Shown: piece by piece, positions 48,165 through 61,210 of the stretch
Position numbering within the stretch: position 1 is the first letter of the stretch
Layout: every line of letters begins with the position of its first letter
From: Friedmanniella luteola
GTDB lineage: Bacteria; Actinomycetota; Actinomycetes; Propionibacteriales; Propionibacteriaceae
Assembly (NCBI RefSeq): GCF_900105065.1
Contig: NZ_LT629749.1
Coordinates: 1,116,001-1,180,000 of the forward strand
Length of the DNA stretch: 64,000 nucleotides
Direction of reading: 5' to 3'
Made by a program: the position numbers and the translations under genes
Notes under the pieces: generated by a model
The model's input: only the letters and a program-made list of their open reading frames with translations
Told to the model about the DNA's origin: nothing
Databases searched by the model: none

Positions 48165-49328
48165 CTACTGCGAGTCGTGCGTGACGTCCGGGTCGGCCGA
48201 CTGGCCGGGGCTGGACTTGCCCTGGTCGGCGTCGCGGAGCGCCGTCTGCACCGTCTCGACCAGCTCGCTCCAGGACTTGTCGAACTTCTCGAGGCCCTCG
48301 CGCTCGAGGACGGCGACGACGTCGTCGAAGTCGACGCCCACGGCGGTCAGCCGGTCGATGACCTGCTGCGCGTCGGGCCCGGTCCCGCTCACCTTGTCGC
48401 CCTGCAGCTCGCCGTGGTCGGCGAAGGCCTGCATCGTCTTCTCGGGCATGGTGTTGACGGTGCCCGCGACGACGAGCTCGCTGACGTAGAGGGTGTCGGG
48501 CAGGTCCGGGTCCTTGACGCCGGTCGAGGCCCAGAGCGGCCGCTGCCGGTTGGCCCCCTGGGCCTCCAGCGCCGTCCAGCGCTCGGAGGAGAACTGCTCC
48601 TCGTACAGGGCATAGGCGAGCCGCGCGTTGGCCAGCGCCGCCTGGCTCTTCAGCGCCTTCGCCTCGTCGGTGCCGACGGCGTCGAGACGCTTGTCGACCT
48701 CGCTGTCCACCCGGGAGACGAAGAACGAGGCCACGGAGTGGATCTGGCCGAGGTCGTGGCCGTTGGCCGCAGCCTGCTCCAGGCCCGAGAAGTAGGCGTC
48801 GATGACGCCCCGGTAGCGCTCGAGCGCGAAGATCAGCGTGACGTTGACGCTGATGCCCTCGGCGATCGAGCGGGTGATCGCCGGGAGTCCTTCGACGGTG
48901 GCCGGGATCTTGATCAGGACGTTCGGCCGGTCCACGATCTTGAACAGGTCCGCGGCCTCGGCGACCGTGCCGTCGGTGTCCTTGGCCAGCCCCGGCTCCA
49001 CCTCGATGGAGACGCGGCCGTCGTAGCCCTTCGACGACGCGTAGACGTCGCTGAACACGTCGCAGGCGTGCCGGACGTCGTCGGTGGTCAGCGCCTTGAT
49101 GGCGTCCTCGACGCTGGAGTCGACGGCGGCGAGCTCGCGCATCTGCTCGTCGTACTGCTCGCCCTTGGCCAGGGCCGAGGCGAAGATCGTCGGGTTGGTG
49201 GTGACGCCCACCACCGACGACGTCGCGGCCAGGTCGGCCAGGTTTCCGGTCTTGAGCCGCTCGCGCGACAGGTCGTCGAGCCAGATGGACACGCCCGCGT
49301 CGGCGAGCTGCTTCAGTCGGTCACTCAT
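48165..49328 (-). CDS. tal: Transaldolase
   Basis: Transfers dihydroxyacetone units between sugar phosphates in the non-oxidative pentose phosphate pathway. 387 residues with [11 protein letters not shown] near the N-terminus and the Schiff-base Lys in [15 protein letters not shown]; the actinobacterial long form. ATG 49328 is preceded by GGAGGA. Downstream of tkt by 47 bp in the same direction. Confidence 0.96.
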
Positions 49329-56799: not shown

Positions 56800-57779
56800 G
56801 CAACTGAGCCGGGACCGACCAGGGCGCCCACCGCGGCGTCCAGGTCGGTCCAGGCGAAGCGGAACCCCGCCCCGAGGAGCGCGGCCGGGACCACCCAGCG
56901 GCTCTTCAGCAGCAGCTCGGACTCCTGGCGCAGCAGCCACATCCCCGGCTCCAGCAGCCAGCGGGGCACCGGCACGCCGACGGGCATCCGCACCGCCCGC
57001 CGCAGCGCCGCCATCAGGGACCGGTTCGTCCCCGCGACGGGGGCGGCCAGGTTGACCGGACCCGCCAGCTCGTCGTGGTCCTCGAGGAAGCGCAGGGCCG
57101 CGAGCAGGTCCTCGACGTGGATCCAGCTGAACCGCTGCTCCCCGTGGGTGCGACCGTGCGGGGGCGCCGGACCGGTGGGGTCCGGGCCGATCCCGCGGTA
57201 GCGGCGGTGCGGGAACCACGGGCCGTCCAGCTGGGGTCCGCCGAAGCCGGTGCGGGCCGCGCGGGCCAGCATCGTCAGCGCCGGGCCGTCGCCCAGCACG
57301 ATGGCCATCCGCAGCGCCACCCGCCGGGTGCCCGGCAGGTCGCCCGCGAGGAGCACCCGCTCCCAGTTCCGGGCGACGTCGACGGAGAACCCCTCGCCGA
57401 GCTCCCCGTCGACCTCGGTCTGCGGCCGGTCCGTCGCGTGCCGGTAGATCGTCGCCGTGCTGGCGTTGAGCCAGAGCCGGGGTGGGGCCGCGGCGTCGCG
57501 GACGGCGCGGTGCAGGGCGGCGGTGGTGTCGACCCGGGAGTCGTAGATCGCGGCGCGGTTCCGGGCCGTGTAGCGGCAGCCGACGCTCCGGCCGGCGAGG
57601 TTGACCAGCAGCTCGGCGCCGTCGACCAGCGCGGCGAGGCGATCGGGCTGGTCCCACCGCGCGTCGGGCCCGTGCCGGCCGACCACGGCCACGGTGTACC
57701 CGCGCTCGGCCAGGTCGGCGCCCACCAGGGGGCCGAGGAACCCCGACGCCCCCGCGAGGACGGCCCGGCGCCCGCTCAT
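56775..57779 (-). CDS. TIGR01777-family NAD-dependent epimerase/dehydratase
   Basis: 334 residues of the extended short-chain dehydrogenase fold: [17 protein letters not shown] nucleotide loop, LVNLAGRSV, and a C-terminal DUF1731-like part ([15 protein letters not shown]). Members (YfcH-like) have unknown substrates. ATG 57779 overlaps the serpin stop by four bases (ATGA), so it is the second gene of a serpin-epimerase operon. The 3' end overlaps araA by 25 bp on the other strand. Confidence 0.85.
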
Positions 57780-59068
57780 GCGGCCCGCGCGGCCGGGTCG
57801 CCGACCTGGACGAGCAGCAGCGGCAGCGCGGTGGCGACGTCGTGCAGGCAGGCGAGGAAGGGCCGGTCGAGGGTCAGCTCCAGCTCGATGGACGGAGCGC
57901 TCACGGCGTCCATCGCGACCCCGGTGGCCGCGGCCGCCTCGAGGCCGTCCTCGTCCAGGGCCAGCCAGCCCTGGTGCCGGACCGCCCCGACGTGCAGCCG
58001 CTCGGAGCGGGTCATGCCGTCGAATTCGGCCAGGCCCGTCGCGAACGCGCGGCGCATCCCGAGACCTTCCAGCACCCCGACCAGGTCCAGCTCCGTGCGG
58101 AGCCGGACGGGCGGCATCCGCAGGGCGACGCCCCGGTCCGGCGCGGTGCGCAGCAGCCGGGTCAGCCCGCCGTCGCGCAGCCGCGCGCGGAGGTCGGCCA
58201 GCCCCCCGTCGGGCCGCACCACCGTCAGCGCCAGCTCCTGCCCGGCGAGGGGCACCCGGGCCGCCGCCCAGCCGTCGCCCGCCAGACCCTGCCCGGGCAG
58301 CGTCACCTGCATCGACGGCACCGTCCCGGTGCCGCCCGGGCCGGTGAAGTCCAGGGGCTCGGCGGGGCCGAAGCGCTCGTGCCAGGGGGCGCGGACGTAC
58401 AGGGCGTTGGCCAGCACCATCCGGGTCTCGGGCTGGAGGGAGCCTCGCGGCATGAGCTCGGTGATCCGGTCGTGGGTCTGCTCGGCCACCCAGGCGTTGA
58501 CGCTGCGCCGGGCCCCCTCGGGGTCGCCGCCGAGGTCGGTCGCACCGACGCCGGTGCCGTACCAGGCGGCCAGCGCCGCGAGGAACGCCGGCTCCCAGGT
58601 GGAGCCCTGCCGGCCCCACACCCGGTTGGCCGCGTCCAGCACCACGCTGGCCTCCTCCCCGTCCCCGTCCCGCCGACGGCCCGCGCGCGTGGCGAGCTCC
58701 TGGTCGAGGGTGCCGAGGCCGGCGTTCAGCCCGGCCAGGTCGGGCAGGTGCAGAGCCTCGTCCATCTCCCGGGCCGTCACCCCGGTGGCGCCGTTGCGGA
58801 CCATCGCCAGGGCGACCAGCACCGACCACGGCGAGCAGACGACGTTGCCGTCGTCGGCGCCCACCACCCCGAGCAGGTCCGTCCCGAAGGCGCTGACCGC
58901 GTCGACGACGGCCGGCACCCGGGCCGGGTCGCCGGGGCGGCGTGCGACGTCGGCGGTGACCAGGCCGGCGTCGCCCCCGCAGCCGGTGACGGTGGCCAGC
59001 GCACCGAGACCCAGGAGCCCCAGCAGCGTGCGCCGCGGCACCAGCGCATCCGTGGTCTCGGGGGTCAC
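57776..59068 (-). CDS. Serpin-family protease inhibitor, predicted lipoprotein
   Basis: 430 residues. The N-terminus has twin arginines followed by a hydrophobic stretch and lipobox VTGC (Cys30), so it is exported and lipid-anchored. The serpin fold is clear: NVVCSPWSVLVALAMVRNGA, ETRMVLANALYVRAPW, and the C-terminal RPFLACLHD...VQVGDP. The hinge DEDGLEAAAATG (residues 372-383) has the small residues needed for an inhibitory stressed-to-relaxed transition. Counting from it, the scissile bond would be Val389-Ser390, suggesting an elastase-like target. GTG 59068 follows TAGCCT (complement 59076-59081) by seven bases. Divergent from the retron-type RT. Confidence 0.88.
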   Translation of the reverse strand: MTPETTDALVPRRTLLGLLGLGALATVTGCGGDAGLVTADVARRPGDPARVPAVVDAVSAFGTDLLGVVGADDGNVVCSPWSVLVALAMVRNGATGVTAREMDEALHLPDLAGLNAGLGTLDQELATRAGRRRDGDGEEASVVLDAANRVWGRQGSTWEPAFLAALAAWYGTGVGATDLGGDPEGARRSVNAWVAEQTHDRITELMPRGSLQPETRMVLANALYVRAPWHERFGPAEPLDFTGPGGTGTVPSMQVTLPGQGLAGDGWAAARVPLAGQELALTVVRPDGGLADLRARLRDGGLTRLLRTAPDRGVALRMPPVRLRTELDLVGVLEGLGMRRAFATGLAEFDGMTRSERLHVGAVRHQGWLALDEDGLEAAAATGVAMDAVSAPSIELELTLDRPFLACLHDVATALPLLLVQVGDPAARAA

Positions 59069-59182
59069 GGCCTGAAGGCTAGGTGCGGGCGGAGCCGCCG
59101 GGCCAGGGCGCGACGCCGACCGACGCCCGACCGTGACCTGCGAGGAGGTGGCGGCCGGGCGGGGGTTGGGCCACCATGTGCC

Positions 59183-59348
59183 CGTGAGGTGGTGCCACCG
59201 GCGAGACACGGTCCGTCCGCGGACCGGCGCCCGAGGAACCCTCCGGTGACAGCACGTCGACCCTGCCGCAGGACCGCAGGTGCGCGTCTGCGCTCCGCGC
59301 AGCTCGGCACCCGCACCCGCCCGACCGGTCGCCCGGCACCACCTCACG
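59183..59348 (+). ncRNA. Candidate retron msr-msd RNA
   Basis: Arms a1 CGTGAGGTGGTGCC (59183-59196) and a2 (59335-59348) form a perfect 14-bp inverted repeat; after a short internal loop GGCGA (59200-59204) can pair with TCGCC (59329-59333). Inside are hairpin 1 CGGTCCG/CGGACCG (59209-59215 with 59220-59226, loop TCCG), hairpin 2 at 59231-59246 (one A-C mismatch, loop AACC), and a distal hairpin: GCAGGTGCG (59276-59284) with 59312-59320 (one A-C mismatch) plus inner CTGCG/CGCAG (59288-59292 with 59298-59302). The order a1, two small hairpins, larger hairpin, a2, then RT start 26 bases later is the retron layout. No experiment or search supports it yet. In the wider gap 59069-59373 I see no other gene and no clear forward promoter. 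Confidence 0.55.
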
Positions 59349-59373
59349 CCCCGACGACGCCGCGGCCGCCGCG

Positions 59374-60720
59374 GTGCCGGTGAAGCGTCGGGACCCGACG
59401 GCGCACGTGGCCCGCGCGCTGGCCTGGAGCTTCCTGGCGGCGCCGGACTGGACCGAGGCCGCGCTCCGGCGGTCCGCCTGGGTGACCCTCGGCCGGCGGC
59501 ACCGCTGGGTGTCGGCGCTCGCGGGCAGCGCCGTGGCGACCTACCGGACGGCGCCGCTCGGCCGGCCGCACGAGCTGGCGGGCCTGCTCGCCGGCTCGGC
59601 GGTGCTCACGACGGCCCTGCACCGGGCCGCCCGCCGGGGGACGCCCGTCCGGGTCCGGGTGCTCCCCACGACGCCCGCGGCCATGGGCCGGCGCCGGTGG
59701 CCGGTGCCCGAGGTCGACGACGGCCCGGCGCTGGCCCGGCTCCTGCAGGTCCCGGACGAGCAGCTGAGCTGGCTGGCCGACGTCCAGGGCCGGCAGCGCC
59801 GGACGCCCGCCGGCCCCCACCACCTCTACCGCTACCGGTGGGTGGCGCGGCCGGGCACGGTCCCGCGGCTGCTGGAGGCGCCGACGCCGCTGCTGCGGCA
59901 CGTCCTGCGCCGGCTGCTCGACGAGGTGCTGGTCTGGGTGCCGGCGCACCCGGCGGCACACGGCTTCGTGCGCGGCCGCAGCGTGCTCAGCCACGCACGG
60001 CGGCACGTCGGCGCCGACCTCGTGCTGGGGCTGGACCTGCGGCACTTCTTCGCGGCCGTGACCGCCGCCCGGGTGGCGGGGCTCTGGACGCTGCTCGGCT
60101 ACCCCGAGGGCGTGGTCACCCTGCTCACCGGGCTGACCACGCACCGCACGCCCGTCCACGTGCTCACCGCGATGCCCCCGGGCGGCGACGTGAGCGGCCG
60201 CCACCTGCTCCGGGCGCGGCTGCGCGCCGCGCACCTCCCGCAGGGCGCGGCCAGCTCGCCCGCGCTCGCCAACCTCGCCTGCTTCACCCTCGACCACCGG
60301 CTGTCCGGGTACGCCGCGGCCCTCGGGGCCACCTACAGCCGCTACGCCGACGACCTGACCTTCTCGGGCCCGCGTGACCTGCCCGCCGCCCGGCTGGTCC
60401 GGTCGGTGACGACCGTCGTCGCCGAGGAGGGTTTTGCGGTCAACCCGACGAAGACCCGGGTGCAGCGCTCCTCGGCCCGGCAGCAGGTCACCGGGCTGGT
60501 GGTGAACGCCGGTCTCGGCATCCCGCGCGAGGACGAGGACCGGCTCCGGGCCGTGCTCCACGACGCCGTCCGCCGCGGCCCGCAGGCGGCGAACCGGGAC
60601 GGGGTCCCCGACTTCCGCGCCCACCTGGAGGGCCGGGTCGGCTGGGTGACCTCGGTCAACCCCGTCCGCGGGGCGCGGCTGCGCCGCCAGCTGGAGGCCG
60701 TCGTCTGGCCGCCGCGCTGA
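59374..60720 (+). CDS. Retron-type reverse transcriptase
   Basis: RNA-dependent DNA polymerase of 448 residues. The retron/RT domain runs from about 118 to 445: fingers segment YRYRWVARPGTVPRLLEAP, GFVRGRSVLSHARRHVG (HARRH at 207-211 sits where retron RTs carry NAxxH), LDLRHFF with catalytic D221, LPQGAASSPALANLAC, YSRYADDLTFSG with catalytic D326/D327, NPTKTRVQ and VTGLVVN (VTG 372-374, the msr-recognition motif in known retrons). The first ~115 residues are a helical extension of unknown role. GTG 59374 has no clear ribosome-binding site; GTG 59380 and 59407 are alternatives. No effector gene is attached: the next gene is an SMR exporter on the other strand, 10 bp away. It could instead be a non-retron cellular RT, but the motifs and upstream RNA argue for a stand-alone retron. 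Confidence 0.88.
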   Translation: MPVKRRDPTAHVARALAWSFLAAPDWTEAALRRSAWVTLGRRHRWVSALAGSAVATYRTAPLGRPHELAGLLAGSAVLTTALHRAARRGTPVRVRVLPTTPAAMGRRRWPVPEVDDGPALARLLQVPDEQLSWLADVQGRQRRTPAGPHHLYRYRWVARPGTVPRLLEAPTPLLRHVLRRLLDEVLVWVPAHPAAHGFVRGRSVLSHARRHVGADLVLGLDLRHFFAAVTAARVAGLWTLLGYPEGVVTLLTGLTTHRTPVHVLTAMPPGGDVSGRHLLRARLRAAHLPQGAASSPALANLACFTLDHRLSGYAAALGATYSRYADDLTFSGPRDLPAARLVRSVTTVVAEEGFAVNPTKTRVQRSSARQQVTGLVVNAGLGIPREDEDRLRAVLHDAVRRGPQAANRDGVPDFRAHLEGRVGWVTSVNPVRGARLRRQLEAVVWPPR

Positions 60721-60730
60721 GCGCCGTCGG

Positions 60731-61054
60731 TCAGTGGCCGTCGCCGACCAGCTTCAGCCCGATGACGCAGCCGACCAGACCGAGGATCAGCAGCACCTTG
60801 ACCAGGGTCACCGACTCGGCGCCGGTGAGCATGGCCCAGGCGACGGTGCACGCGGCACCGATGCCCACCCAGACGGCGTAGGCCGTCCCGGTCGGCAGGT
60901 CCCGCAGCGCGAACGCCAGGCCGGCCATGCTGGCCAGCAGGCTGACGGCGAAGACGAGGCTGGGCCCCAGCCGGCTGAAGCCCTCCGACCGGCCGAGCGC
61001 CGTGGCCCACACCGCCTCCAGCACCCCGGCCACCACGAGCACGACCCACGCCAT
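60731..61054 (-). CDS. Small multidrug resistance (SMR/SugE-Gdx-like) exporter
   Basis: 107 residues with four transmembrane helices. The conserved Glu in VVAGVLEAVWATALG is the proton/substrate site, and GTAYAVWVGIGA is the family signature. The GFSRLGPS segment resembles Gdx/SugE-type guanidinium exporters more than EmrE. ATG 61054 has GGGAGG upstream. A TAGGCT hexamer on the minus strand (complement 61134-61139) implies a leader of ~75 nt. It converges with the RT gene. Confidence 0.88.
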   Translation of the reverse strand: MAWVVLVVAGVLEAVWATALGRSEGFSRLGPSLVFAVSLLASMAGLAFALRDLPTGTAYAVWVGIGAACTVAWAMLTGAESVTLVKVLLILGLVGCVIGLKLVGDGH

Positions 61055-61210
61055 GACGCCCACCTCCCGGACCGGTCCGTCGCGGTCCCGGCCTGCCTCG
61101 TCGCGTCCGGCGGCGTGCCGACGCCGTCCCCGGAGCCTAGCCGGGGGCGACGTCGCGCCGTCGCCGGCGGCTGCTGGTCGTGTCGGGGCCGGGGCCCCTA
61201 GGGTCCGGGC

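What the first reader, a model, noticed from the sequence alone, without database searches (positions are those of the whole stretch)
59183..59348. Candidate stand-alone retron: RT gene preceded by a msr-msd-like RNA with a perfect 14-bp a1/a2 repeat
Seen: CGTGAGGTGGTGCC at 59183-59196 and its exact reverse complement at 59335-59348, ending 26 bases before a retron-type RT. Two compact hairpins lie in the 5' half and a ~45-nt hairpin in the 3' half. A rough estimate (independent bases, ~73% GC) gives about 0.003 perfect 14-bp repeats expected by chance in a 300-nt gap. Known: retrons are built as a1-msr-msd-a2-RT, the a1/a2 duplex being needed for priming. Inference: this RNA is the RT's template and yields msDNA; there is no adjacent effector, as in myxobacterial-type retrons.
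Basis: partly seen in the sequence, partly recalled or inferred. Interest (0 to 1): 0.88.

Follow-up and report, generated by a model that had tools for sequence, protein, structure and literature searches.

The report
Effector-less retron in Microlunatus-like actinobacterium
A bacterial reverse-transcriptase gene is preceded by a conserved folded RNA that it most likely copies into a small DNA; relatives in other bacteria keep the same pair with no shared toxin gene beside it, so what this retron does is open.

Summary
CGTGAGGTGGTGCC (59183-59196) and its exact reverse complement (59335-59348) flank a folded RNA ending 25 nt before a retron-type RT (59374-60720). The repeat alone would arise by chance in about 0.3% of such regions; comparison settles it. 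Twelve family-level loci and 25 loci of a second family (probably Nocardioides) keep the layout a1-msr-msd-a2-RT. Letters differ but pairing holds: 14 and 11 pairs change on both sides, 0 of 500 shuffles reach this. A covariance model from the 12 finds the RNA just 5' of the RT in all 27 second-family loci tested, and in Tsukamurella, Dietzia and Burkholderia. Of 17 hits in 196 genomes, 14 lie beside an open RT and 3 beside a broken one. Two signs suggest selection on the copied DNA: few G-U pairs in the msd stem, and a tip that would give the stable DNA mini-hairpin d(GCGNAGC) in 37 of 37 rows. No effector-like gene is shared by the loci (ORFs of 80 aa or more). I read it as a retron of an effector-less, N-terminally extended clade (PADLOC RT_other/RT_outgroup). 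msDNA production and function are untested.

The parts
59183..59196 (+). a1 arm, CGTGAGGTGGTGCC
   Evidence: exact complement of 59335-59348; arms covary in 12 family-level loci, 6 of 9 pairs changed on both sides
59200..59204 (+). inner part of the priming helix, GGCGA, pairs with 59329-59333
   Evidence: fold; CGA/UCG core paired in 25 of 25 rows of A3 and in 12 of 12 rows of A1, one row by U-G
59205..59205 (+). candidate branching (priming) guanosine, first G after the CGA/UCG helix (context GAGA); inferred
   Evidence: G in 11 of 12 rows of A1 (L009 has A, then G) and 25 of 25 rows of A3; contexts named in PMC6868368: TAGC, CAGA, CAGC, GAGC, ACGC (passages)
59209..59226 (+). msr stem-loop 1
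   Evidence: fold; the equivalent helix in second-family loci has 6 of 11 pairs changed on both sides
59229..59247 (+). msr stem-loop 2, CGCCCGAGG-AAC-CCTCCGG
   Evidence: fold; kept in A1 and A3 and in Burkholderia, Tsukamurella and Dietzia loci
59255..59328 (+). predicted msd template; cDNA expected to start opposite about 59328; the 5' limit is uncertain by about 15 nt
   Evidence: inference from retron anatomy and from where the priming helix ends; the DNA fold of the 71-nt copy of 59258-59328 as a whole is no better than shuffles (z -0.51, 60 of 200)
59276..59314 (+). msd hairpin
   Evidence: 6 of 13 pairs change on both sides in A1, 96-100% of cells paired; DNA fold of the copy of 59274-59316: -17.0 kcal/mol, z -2.70, 3 of 200 shuffles as good
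59292..59298 (+). msd tip GCTCCGC; its DNA copy is d(GCGGAGC), a GNA mini-hairpin
   Evidence: GCTCCGC (29) or GCTTCGC (8) in 37 of 37 aligned rows
59329..59333 (+). inner priming helix, 3' side, TCGCC
59335..59348 (+). a2 arm, GGCACCACCTCACG
59374..60720 (+). retron-type reverse transcriptase, 448 aa, GTG start (first in-frame start); YADD at residues 324-327, VTG at 372-374, HARRH (region X) at 207-211; about 100-residue N-terminal extension
   Evidence: Pfam RVT_1 9.5e-18; PADLOC RT_other 4.7e-160, RT_outgroup 1.6e-151; PDB Ec86 RT 8.4e-32; alignment A4

Best explanation
It is a genuine two-part retron. One transcript from about 59180 carries a1-msr-msd-a2 and the RT gene. The a1/a2 arms and an inner GGCGA/TCGCC helix close the RNA and place a conserved guanosine (probably 59205) as primer. 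The RT then starts a 2'-5' linked cDNA opposite about 59328, copies the msd hairpin and stops near 59255-59270, giving an msDNA with roughly 55-75 nt of DNA that holds a d(GCGGAGC) mini-hairpin at the tip of its stem. Shown: the layout, its conservation and covariation, the link with the RT, and that no effector-like neighbour is shared. Inferred: transcription, priming site, cDNA ends. Function, inferred and weak: the RT-msDNA complex is a module kept on the chromosome, working on a partner encoded elsewhere or through its own N-terminal extension, most likely in phage defence or stress.
For: Covariation in two alignments. A1, 12 rows: 14 of 34 pairs changed on both sides, 93.6% of cells paired against 83.9% shuffled. 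A3, 25 gap-free rows: 11 of 51 pairs, 97.5% against 95.1%. 0 of 500 shuffles reach the observed values in both, for four of five measures; slid controls fall to 33-55% paired. The model from A1 finds 27 of 27 second-family loci it was not trained on (E 1.3e-10 to 1.2e-4) and L085 (4.9e-8), L172 (2e-21) and Tsukamurella, Burkholderia and Dietzia loci (1.1e-6, 4.8e-6, 5.7e-6). In 196 genomes of the order, 17 hits, 4 of them training members: 14 beside an open, near full-length RT, 3 beside a broken RT, none elsewhere. RT motifs and families. DNA-level signs: G-U pairs 2 of 449 standard cells in msd against 54 of 651 in msr (Fisher 7e-11 takes cells as independent, which they are not); among pairs that vary at all, 2 of 11 in msd against 12 of 14 in msr hold any G-U. 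msd tip C(TNC)G in 37 of 37 rows.
Against: No transcript or msDNA from this clade was seen in anything I could read. The usual TAGC primer context is absent and the primer is a guess between two guanosines. The fifth covariation measure (further pair types) does not exceed shuffles (309 and 114 of 500). The Bryobacterales relative L021 (37% identity) and L022 gave no model hit (L021; L022); L084 is weak (E 0.016). The DNA fold of the whole predicted cDNA is not better than shuffles, nor is that of the Burkholderia msd (z -0.65). The tip motif fails in L085 and Burkholderia.
Confidence: 0.93

Rival explanations
1. The RNA is a cis-acting leader (attenuator or autoregulatory site) of the RT gene and is bound but never copied into DNA.
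For: It lies just 5' of the RT in the loci examined, and a structured leader would also covary.
Against: The RT belongs to the retron family. The layout with closing arms, msr hairpins and a longer msd hairpin is that of retrons. G-U pairs are nearly absent from the msd stem only, and the tip would form a DNA-stable GNA loop, which is hard to explain if only RNA is selected.
Confidence: 0.05
2. A retron whose toxic effector is encoded elsewhere in the genome, as a split three-part defence system.
For: Retrons typically comprise RT, RNA and a toxic effector (PMC12548924, start of abstract in listing and passages). No shared effector-like neighbour was found at 41 loci.
Against: No unlinked gene was sought by co-occurrence. 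An unlinked effector would have to follow a patchy retron across genera.
Confidence: 0.3
3. The RT acts alone with its msDNA: the about 100-residue N-terminal extension is the effector or partner-binding part, giving a two-component defence or stress module.
For: The extension is shared from Actinomycetota to Burkholderia (match over residues 14-447, 40% identity) and by the PADLOC RT_other profile (residues 5-446). Beside the Burkholderia RT lie genes for a plasmid fertility inhibition factor, an H-NS-like protein and an MFS transporter, none in PADLOC.
Against: Pfam finds only RVT_1 in the 27 members of A4 at E up to 0.001. No fold could be predicted. In the Tsukamurella plasmid a HAD hydrolase gene starts 28 nt after the RT and an HTH gene follows, the latter weakly like PADLOC's HTH_VI (3.7e-9) and other HTH proteins, so local partners may exist in single lineages.
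Confidence: 0.35
4. The inverted repeat is chance, or belongs to the divergent serpin gene's upstream region.
For: Perfect 14-bp repeats occur in about 0.3% of such regions, and one other is in the window.
Against: Orthologous loci keep the pairing with changed letters and mostly have other upstream genes.
Confidence: 0.01

Closest known systems
Myxobacterial retrons Mx162, Sa163, Mx65 (Retron-Mxa1, -Sau1, -Mxa2)
   Same: RT with an extended N terminus (PMC6868368, passages read); no adjacent effector (recalled); vertical inheritance (Rice and Lampson 1995, seen only as a reference title).
   Different: Mx162 has a 162-nt msd and a 241-nt transcript (PMC6868368); here the closed RNA is 166 nt with a 39-nt msd hairpin. 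No myxobacterial sequence was compared.
PADLOC RT_other (PDLC02949) and RT_outgroup (PDLC03740)
   Same: The two best profiles of the window's RT, covering the extension; both match 27 of 27 RTs of A4 and have the lowest best E-values there.
   Different: PADLOC holds only the protein; no Rfam 15 family matches the RNA.
Retron Ec86 (Eco1)
   Same: Closest solved RT by sequence; same order a1-msr-msd-a2-RT (recalled); YADD and VTG aligned.
   Different: Ec86 has adjacent partner genes (recalled); its RT chain is 320 residues and only RT motifs align.
Type XIII retrons (PADLOC RT_XIII)
   Same: Third-best profile, 7e-87.
   Different: 290 bits against 532 for RT_other; only residues 109-443 match, so the extension is not covered; no shared partner genes at these loci.

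Membership tests
Retron | RT of the retron lineage with YADD, VTG (region Y) and NAxxH-like region X | tested here: met
   VTG present, region X reads HARRH in the window (A and H kept, N replaced); motif use read in PMC4244168 passages, which also report variants
Retron | msr-msd RNA closed by a1/a2 just 5' of the RT | tested here: met
Retron | branching guanosine at the inner end of the a1/a2 helix | tested here: inconclusive
   conserved CGAG box but two candidate guanosines and no TAGC
Retron | msDNA with 2'-5' RNA-DNA branch is produced | not testable with these tools
   needs nucleic acid extraction; indirect DNA-level signs
Retron | associated effector (typical, not universal) | tested here: not met
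   largest non-RT cluster spans 14 of 41 loci and is a grpE-like housekeeping gene (ORFs under 80 aa not seen)
Myxobacterial-type (effector-less, N-extended) retrons | RT with extended N terminus | tested here: met
   alignment A4, Burkholderia match; trait of myxococcal RTs
Myxobacterial-type (effector-less, N-extended) retrons | sequence kinship with Mx162/Sa163 RT or RNA | not tested
Type XIII retron | RT closest to RT_XIII with its partner genes | tested here: not met
   RT_other 532 bits against RT_XIII 290; no shared partners

The most novel reading that the evidence does not exclude
This is a retron lineage, spread from Actinomycetota to Burkholderia, that works without a dedicated effector and makes an msDNA selected for its DNA fold: a stem kept almost free of RNA-only G-U pairs and, in nearly all actinobacterial members seen, capped by the nuclease-resistant mini-hairpin d(GCGNAGC). 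In one clade it has stayed beside the dnaK-grpE-dnaJ operon, so it may be a domesticated stress or housekeeping element, not a mobile toxin-antitoxin defence.
Probability: 0.35. Interest if true: 0.75.

Novelty: new member of a known kind. Interest (0 to 1): 0.55.

Why it matters
Retrons are now read as effector-guarding phage defences, yet some lack clear effector genes nearby and their job is open (PMC8867640, passages). This locus gives an RNA model and a set of orthologues (two actinobacterial families, two actinobacterial plasmids, a Burkholderia replicon) for an effector-less clade, making 'what does a retron do without an effector' testable. If the GNA tip is confirmed, it offers a small, naturally stabilised msDNA, of possible use for retron tools in high-GC actinobacteria.

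Tried and rejected
Rfam: no retron family matches, either at gathering scores over the window (one tRNA only) or at E up to 10 over 59050-59420 (two chance-level hits). Adjacent effector: rejected by clustering the neighbours of 41 loci; it used a simple ORF caller with an 80-aa limit, three loci are cut short by contig ends (L055, L020, L025), and one second-family genome (G227) was not fetched. A small protein just downstream of the RT (82-90 aa) looked like a partner: tblastn finds it in 13 of 13 dnaK-operon loci, but it occurs in 102 of 391 genomes of the order, while only 39 of 391 carry this RT, and in the window's own genome far away at C1:1738692, so it is a neighbour, not a partner. 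PADLOC on five window neighbours: 0 families; on three Burkholderia and three Tsukamurella neighbours: 0 for five, general HTH models for one. Of 103 plasmid records with an RT match only three loci were examined. Viral contigs gave RTs of at most 36% identity (best segment; 80 of 194 kept); phage records 9, at most 30%. My first entry of the SMR gene was out of frame (60731-61055, 0 families); in frame it is Multi_Drug_Res. In one search the second sequence (L058) was folded on the template strand, not as the copy, and is not used. Literature: Mestre 2020 (two ids), Khan 2024 and a FEMS 2021 review are not held, so whether their tables already list this RNA is unknown.

Full report
What is there. 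The window lies at C1:1116001-1180000 of a 4.72-Mb genome. At 59374-60720 (+) lies a 448-aa reverse transcriptase. Pfam gives RVT_1 (9.5e-18); PADLOC's two best profiles are RT_other (4.7e-160) and RT_outgroup (1.6e-151), over nearly the whole length; the nearest solved structures are Ec86 retron RTs (8.4e-32). The enclosed RNA folds with paired arms, two short hairpins and a third, longer one (z -2.87).

Chance. A simulation gives 0.30% for such a repeat somewhere in a region of this size and composition, and 0.13% with the 3' arm near the gene. The repeat alone would therefore not be enough.

Conservation. Own genome included, the RT search gave 12 of 20 genomes of the genus at E up to 0.001: nine with this RT, one remnant (G012) and two with other retron-type RTs only (G007, G008). 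At E up to 1e-40 it gave 12 of 198 genomes of the family and 39 of 391 of the order. A phylum sample with the RT_outgroup profile gave 3 of 296, own included, with 0 of 14 control genomes, so the element is patchy. Upstream of the RTs the same anatomy appears with other letters, for instance TGCGGTGGCGCCGGGG/CTCCGGCGCCACCGCA in L023 and GGGGCGGCGTCGGG/TCCGACGCCGCCTC in L007. Two alignments were counted. A1 has 12 family-level loci (in L008 the contig ends inside the RT, in L025 the RT match begins at residue 154): 34 pairs, 14 with changes on both sides, 93.6% of cells paired. A3 has 25 gap-free rows from the second family, probably Nocardioides (inferred from its place in the order). Of 28 second-family genomes 27 were fetched; L076 was left out as a duplicate and L083 because the search pattern missed it. 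A3 has 51 pairs, 11 changed on both sides, 97.5% of cells paired. Both beat all 500 shuffles on four of five measures; the number of further pair types did not (309 of 500 in A1, 114 of 500 in A3). The A1 structure came from the same alignment, and A3's from one member's fold adjusted by me after seeing the rows, which favours both.

The RNA goes with the RT. A covariance model from A1 found all 27 fetched second-family loci, none used in training, at E 1.3e-10 to 1.2e-4, each best hit just 5' of the RT. It also found L085 (another family of the phylum, 4.9e-8) and L084 weakly (0.016), then a Tsukamurella plasmid, a Dietzia plasmid and a Burkholderia cenocepacia replicon (1.1e-6 to 5.7e-6), where 16- and 17-bp arms are seen in the Tsukamurella and Burkholderia loci. 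It found nothing at L021 or L022. Besides these, searches list weak hits (E 0.018 and above) at other places, as expected at such cut-offs. In 196 genomes of the order the model gave 17 hits at E up to 0.001, four of them training members. By coordinates 14 sit beside an open RT; G012, G116 and G208 sit beside broken RTs: C-terminal fragment only; large deletion plus frame change; split frame. None was free of RT sequence. How many RT-bearing genomes of that sample the model missed cannot be told from the output.

Signs of selection on DNA. In the retron model the msd is copied and works as DNA, where an RNA G-U pair becomes a C-A mismatch. Over A1 and A3, G-U makes 54 of 651 standard cells in msr helices and 18 of 525 in a1/a2, but 2 of 449 in msd helices (A1 stem-loop 1 was not aligned well enough to count). 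Related rows are not independent, so the Fisher value 7e-11 overstates the case; by pairs it is 12 of 31 msr pairs with any G-U against 2 of 25 in msd, and among pairs that vary, 12 of 14 against 2 of 11. Further, the tip of the msd hairpin reads GCTCCGC (29) or GCTTCGC (8) in 37 of 37 rows; L172 has GCTGCGC, and L083, L084, L174 and L175 have GCTCCGC, while L085 and the Burkholderia copy do not fit (GTT loop). The DNA copies are d(GCGGAGC), d(GCGAAGC) and d(GCGCAGC), of the GNA mini-hairpin type described as extraordinarily stable and remarkably resistant to nucleases (PMC4686876, passages read). Within these rows only the N position varies. Against this: the whole 71-nt predicted cDNA folds no better than shuffles; the 43-nt hairpin part does (z -2.70). 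No paper among the 40 of 74 shown in one search holds both retron or msDNA and the hairpin terms; that is a narrow search.

No shared effector. ORFs of at least 80 aa within about 6 kb of 41 loci were clustered. The RT cluster spans 38 loci (in L060, L079 and L020 the simple gene caller did not pick the RT). The next clusters (14, 13 and 12 loci) are grpE-, dnaK- and dnaJ-like, named by eye from their sequences (one search prints them), then two of 11. In 13 of 27 second-family loci the retron follows this operon; those 13 fall in one 16-row clade of the RT tree (97/97; L083 dropped as too short). This suggests long residence at one place. The Microlunatus contig L020 also has dnaK- and grpE-like genes nearby, facing away. 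The window's own neighbours are a serpin (PF00079, 1.1e-66), a small multidrug resistance protein, an alpha/beta hydrolase and a flotillin-like protein; five window neighbours have no PADLOC hit. The sister genome G002 shares flanking genes with the window (clusters 22-27). Single lineages may have local partners: the Tsukamurella RT is followed by HAD hydrolase and HTH genes.

Mechanism. The CGA/UCG inner helix is paired in 12 of 12 and 25 of 25 rows, and the first guanosine after it (59205) is my choice for the branch; 59203 is the alternative. Contexts named in PMC6868368 (passages read) are TAGC, CAGA, CAGC, GAGC and ACGC; GAGA is not among them. cDNA would begin opposite about 59328. These steps are inferred.

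Place among known systems. It works like a retron; of the sequence-level features tested, the RT and the RNA layout are met, the branch guanosine is inconclusive and the typical effector is absent; production of msDNA could not be tested. Within retrons it belongs to the RT_other/RT_outgroup set and resembles myxobacterial retrons in its extended RT and lack of effector; no myxobacterial sequence was compared. Putative retrons in Actinobacteria have been noted before (PMC6868368, passages), and the main survey papers were not readable here, so I call it a new member of a known kind. What may be new is the RNA family itself, absent from Rfam 15, the DNA-level tip, and the effector-less clade reaching from Actinomycetota to Burkholderia.

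Noticed in passing
L011 (G012), L172 (G116), L083 (G208): Broken copies of the retron: RT reduced to its C-terminal end with the msd lost; RT with a large internal deletion and frame change but well-kept RNA; RT split between frames with RNA kept.
   Followed up: partly
L059, L063, L065-L069, L071-L074, L076, L078: In one clade the retron sits just downstream of a dnaK-grpE-dnaJ-like heat-shock operon, co-directional (in five loci with a MerR/HspR-like gene between); co-transcription is possible (names by eye).
   Followed up: partly
L067 region just 3' of the RT: Small conserved protein (82-90 aa) ending in a CGHRN...HRYS-like stretch, found in 102 of 391 genomes of the order, unknown function.
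   Followed up: partly
window 57776-59068 (-): Serpin-family gene (Pfam hit on the longer ORF to 59347), divergent from the retron, with a lipoprotein-like start by eye.
   Followed up: no
window 49074-49087 and 49211-49224: The only other perfect 14-bp inverted repeat with 60-300 nt spacer in the window, GACGTCGTCGGTGG.
   Followed up: no
L004, between a2 and the RT: Tandem GTCAGGCTGA-type repeats fill the longer gap between a2 and the RT start.
   Followed up: no
L014, L015, L010, L012: Other, distant retron-type RTs (34-38% identity) in genomes of the same genus; G001 and G009 carry one besides this retron.
   Followed up: no
L174 5989-7030: In the Tsukamurella plasmid the RT is followed by a HAD hydrolase gene and an HTH gene weakly like PADLOC HTH_VI; possible local partners.
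   Followed up: partly
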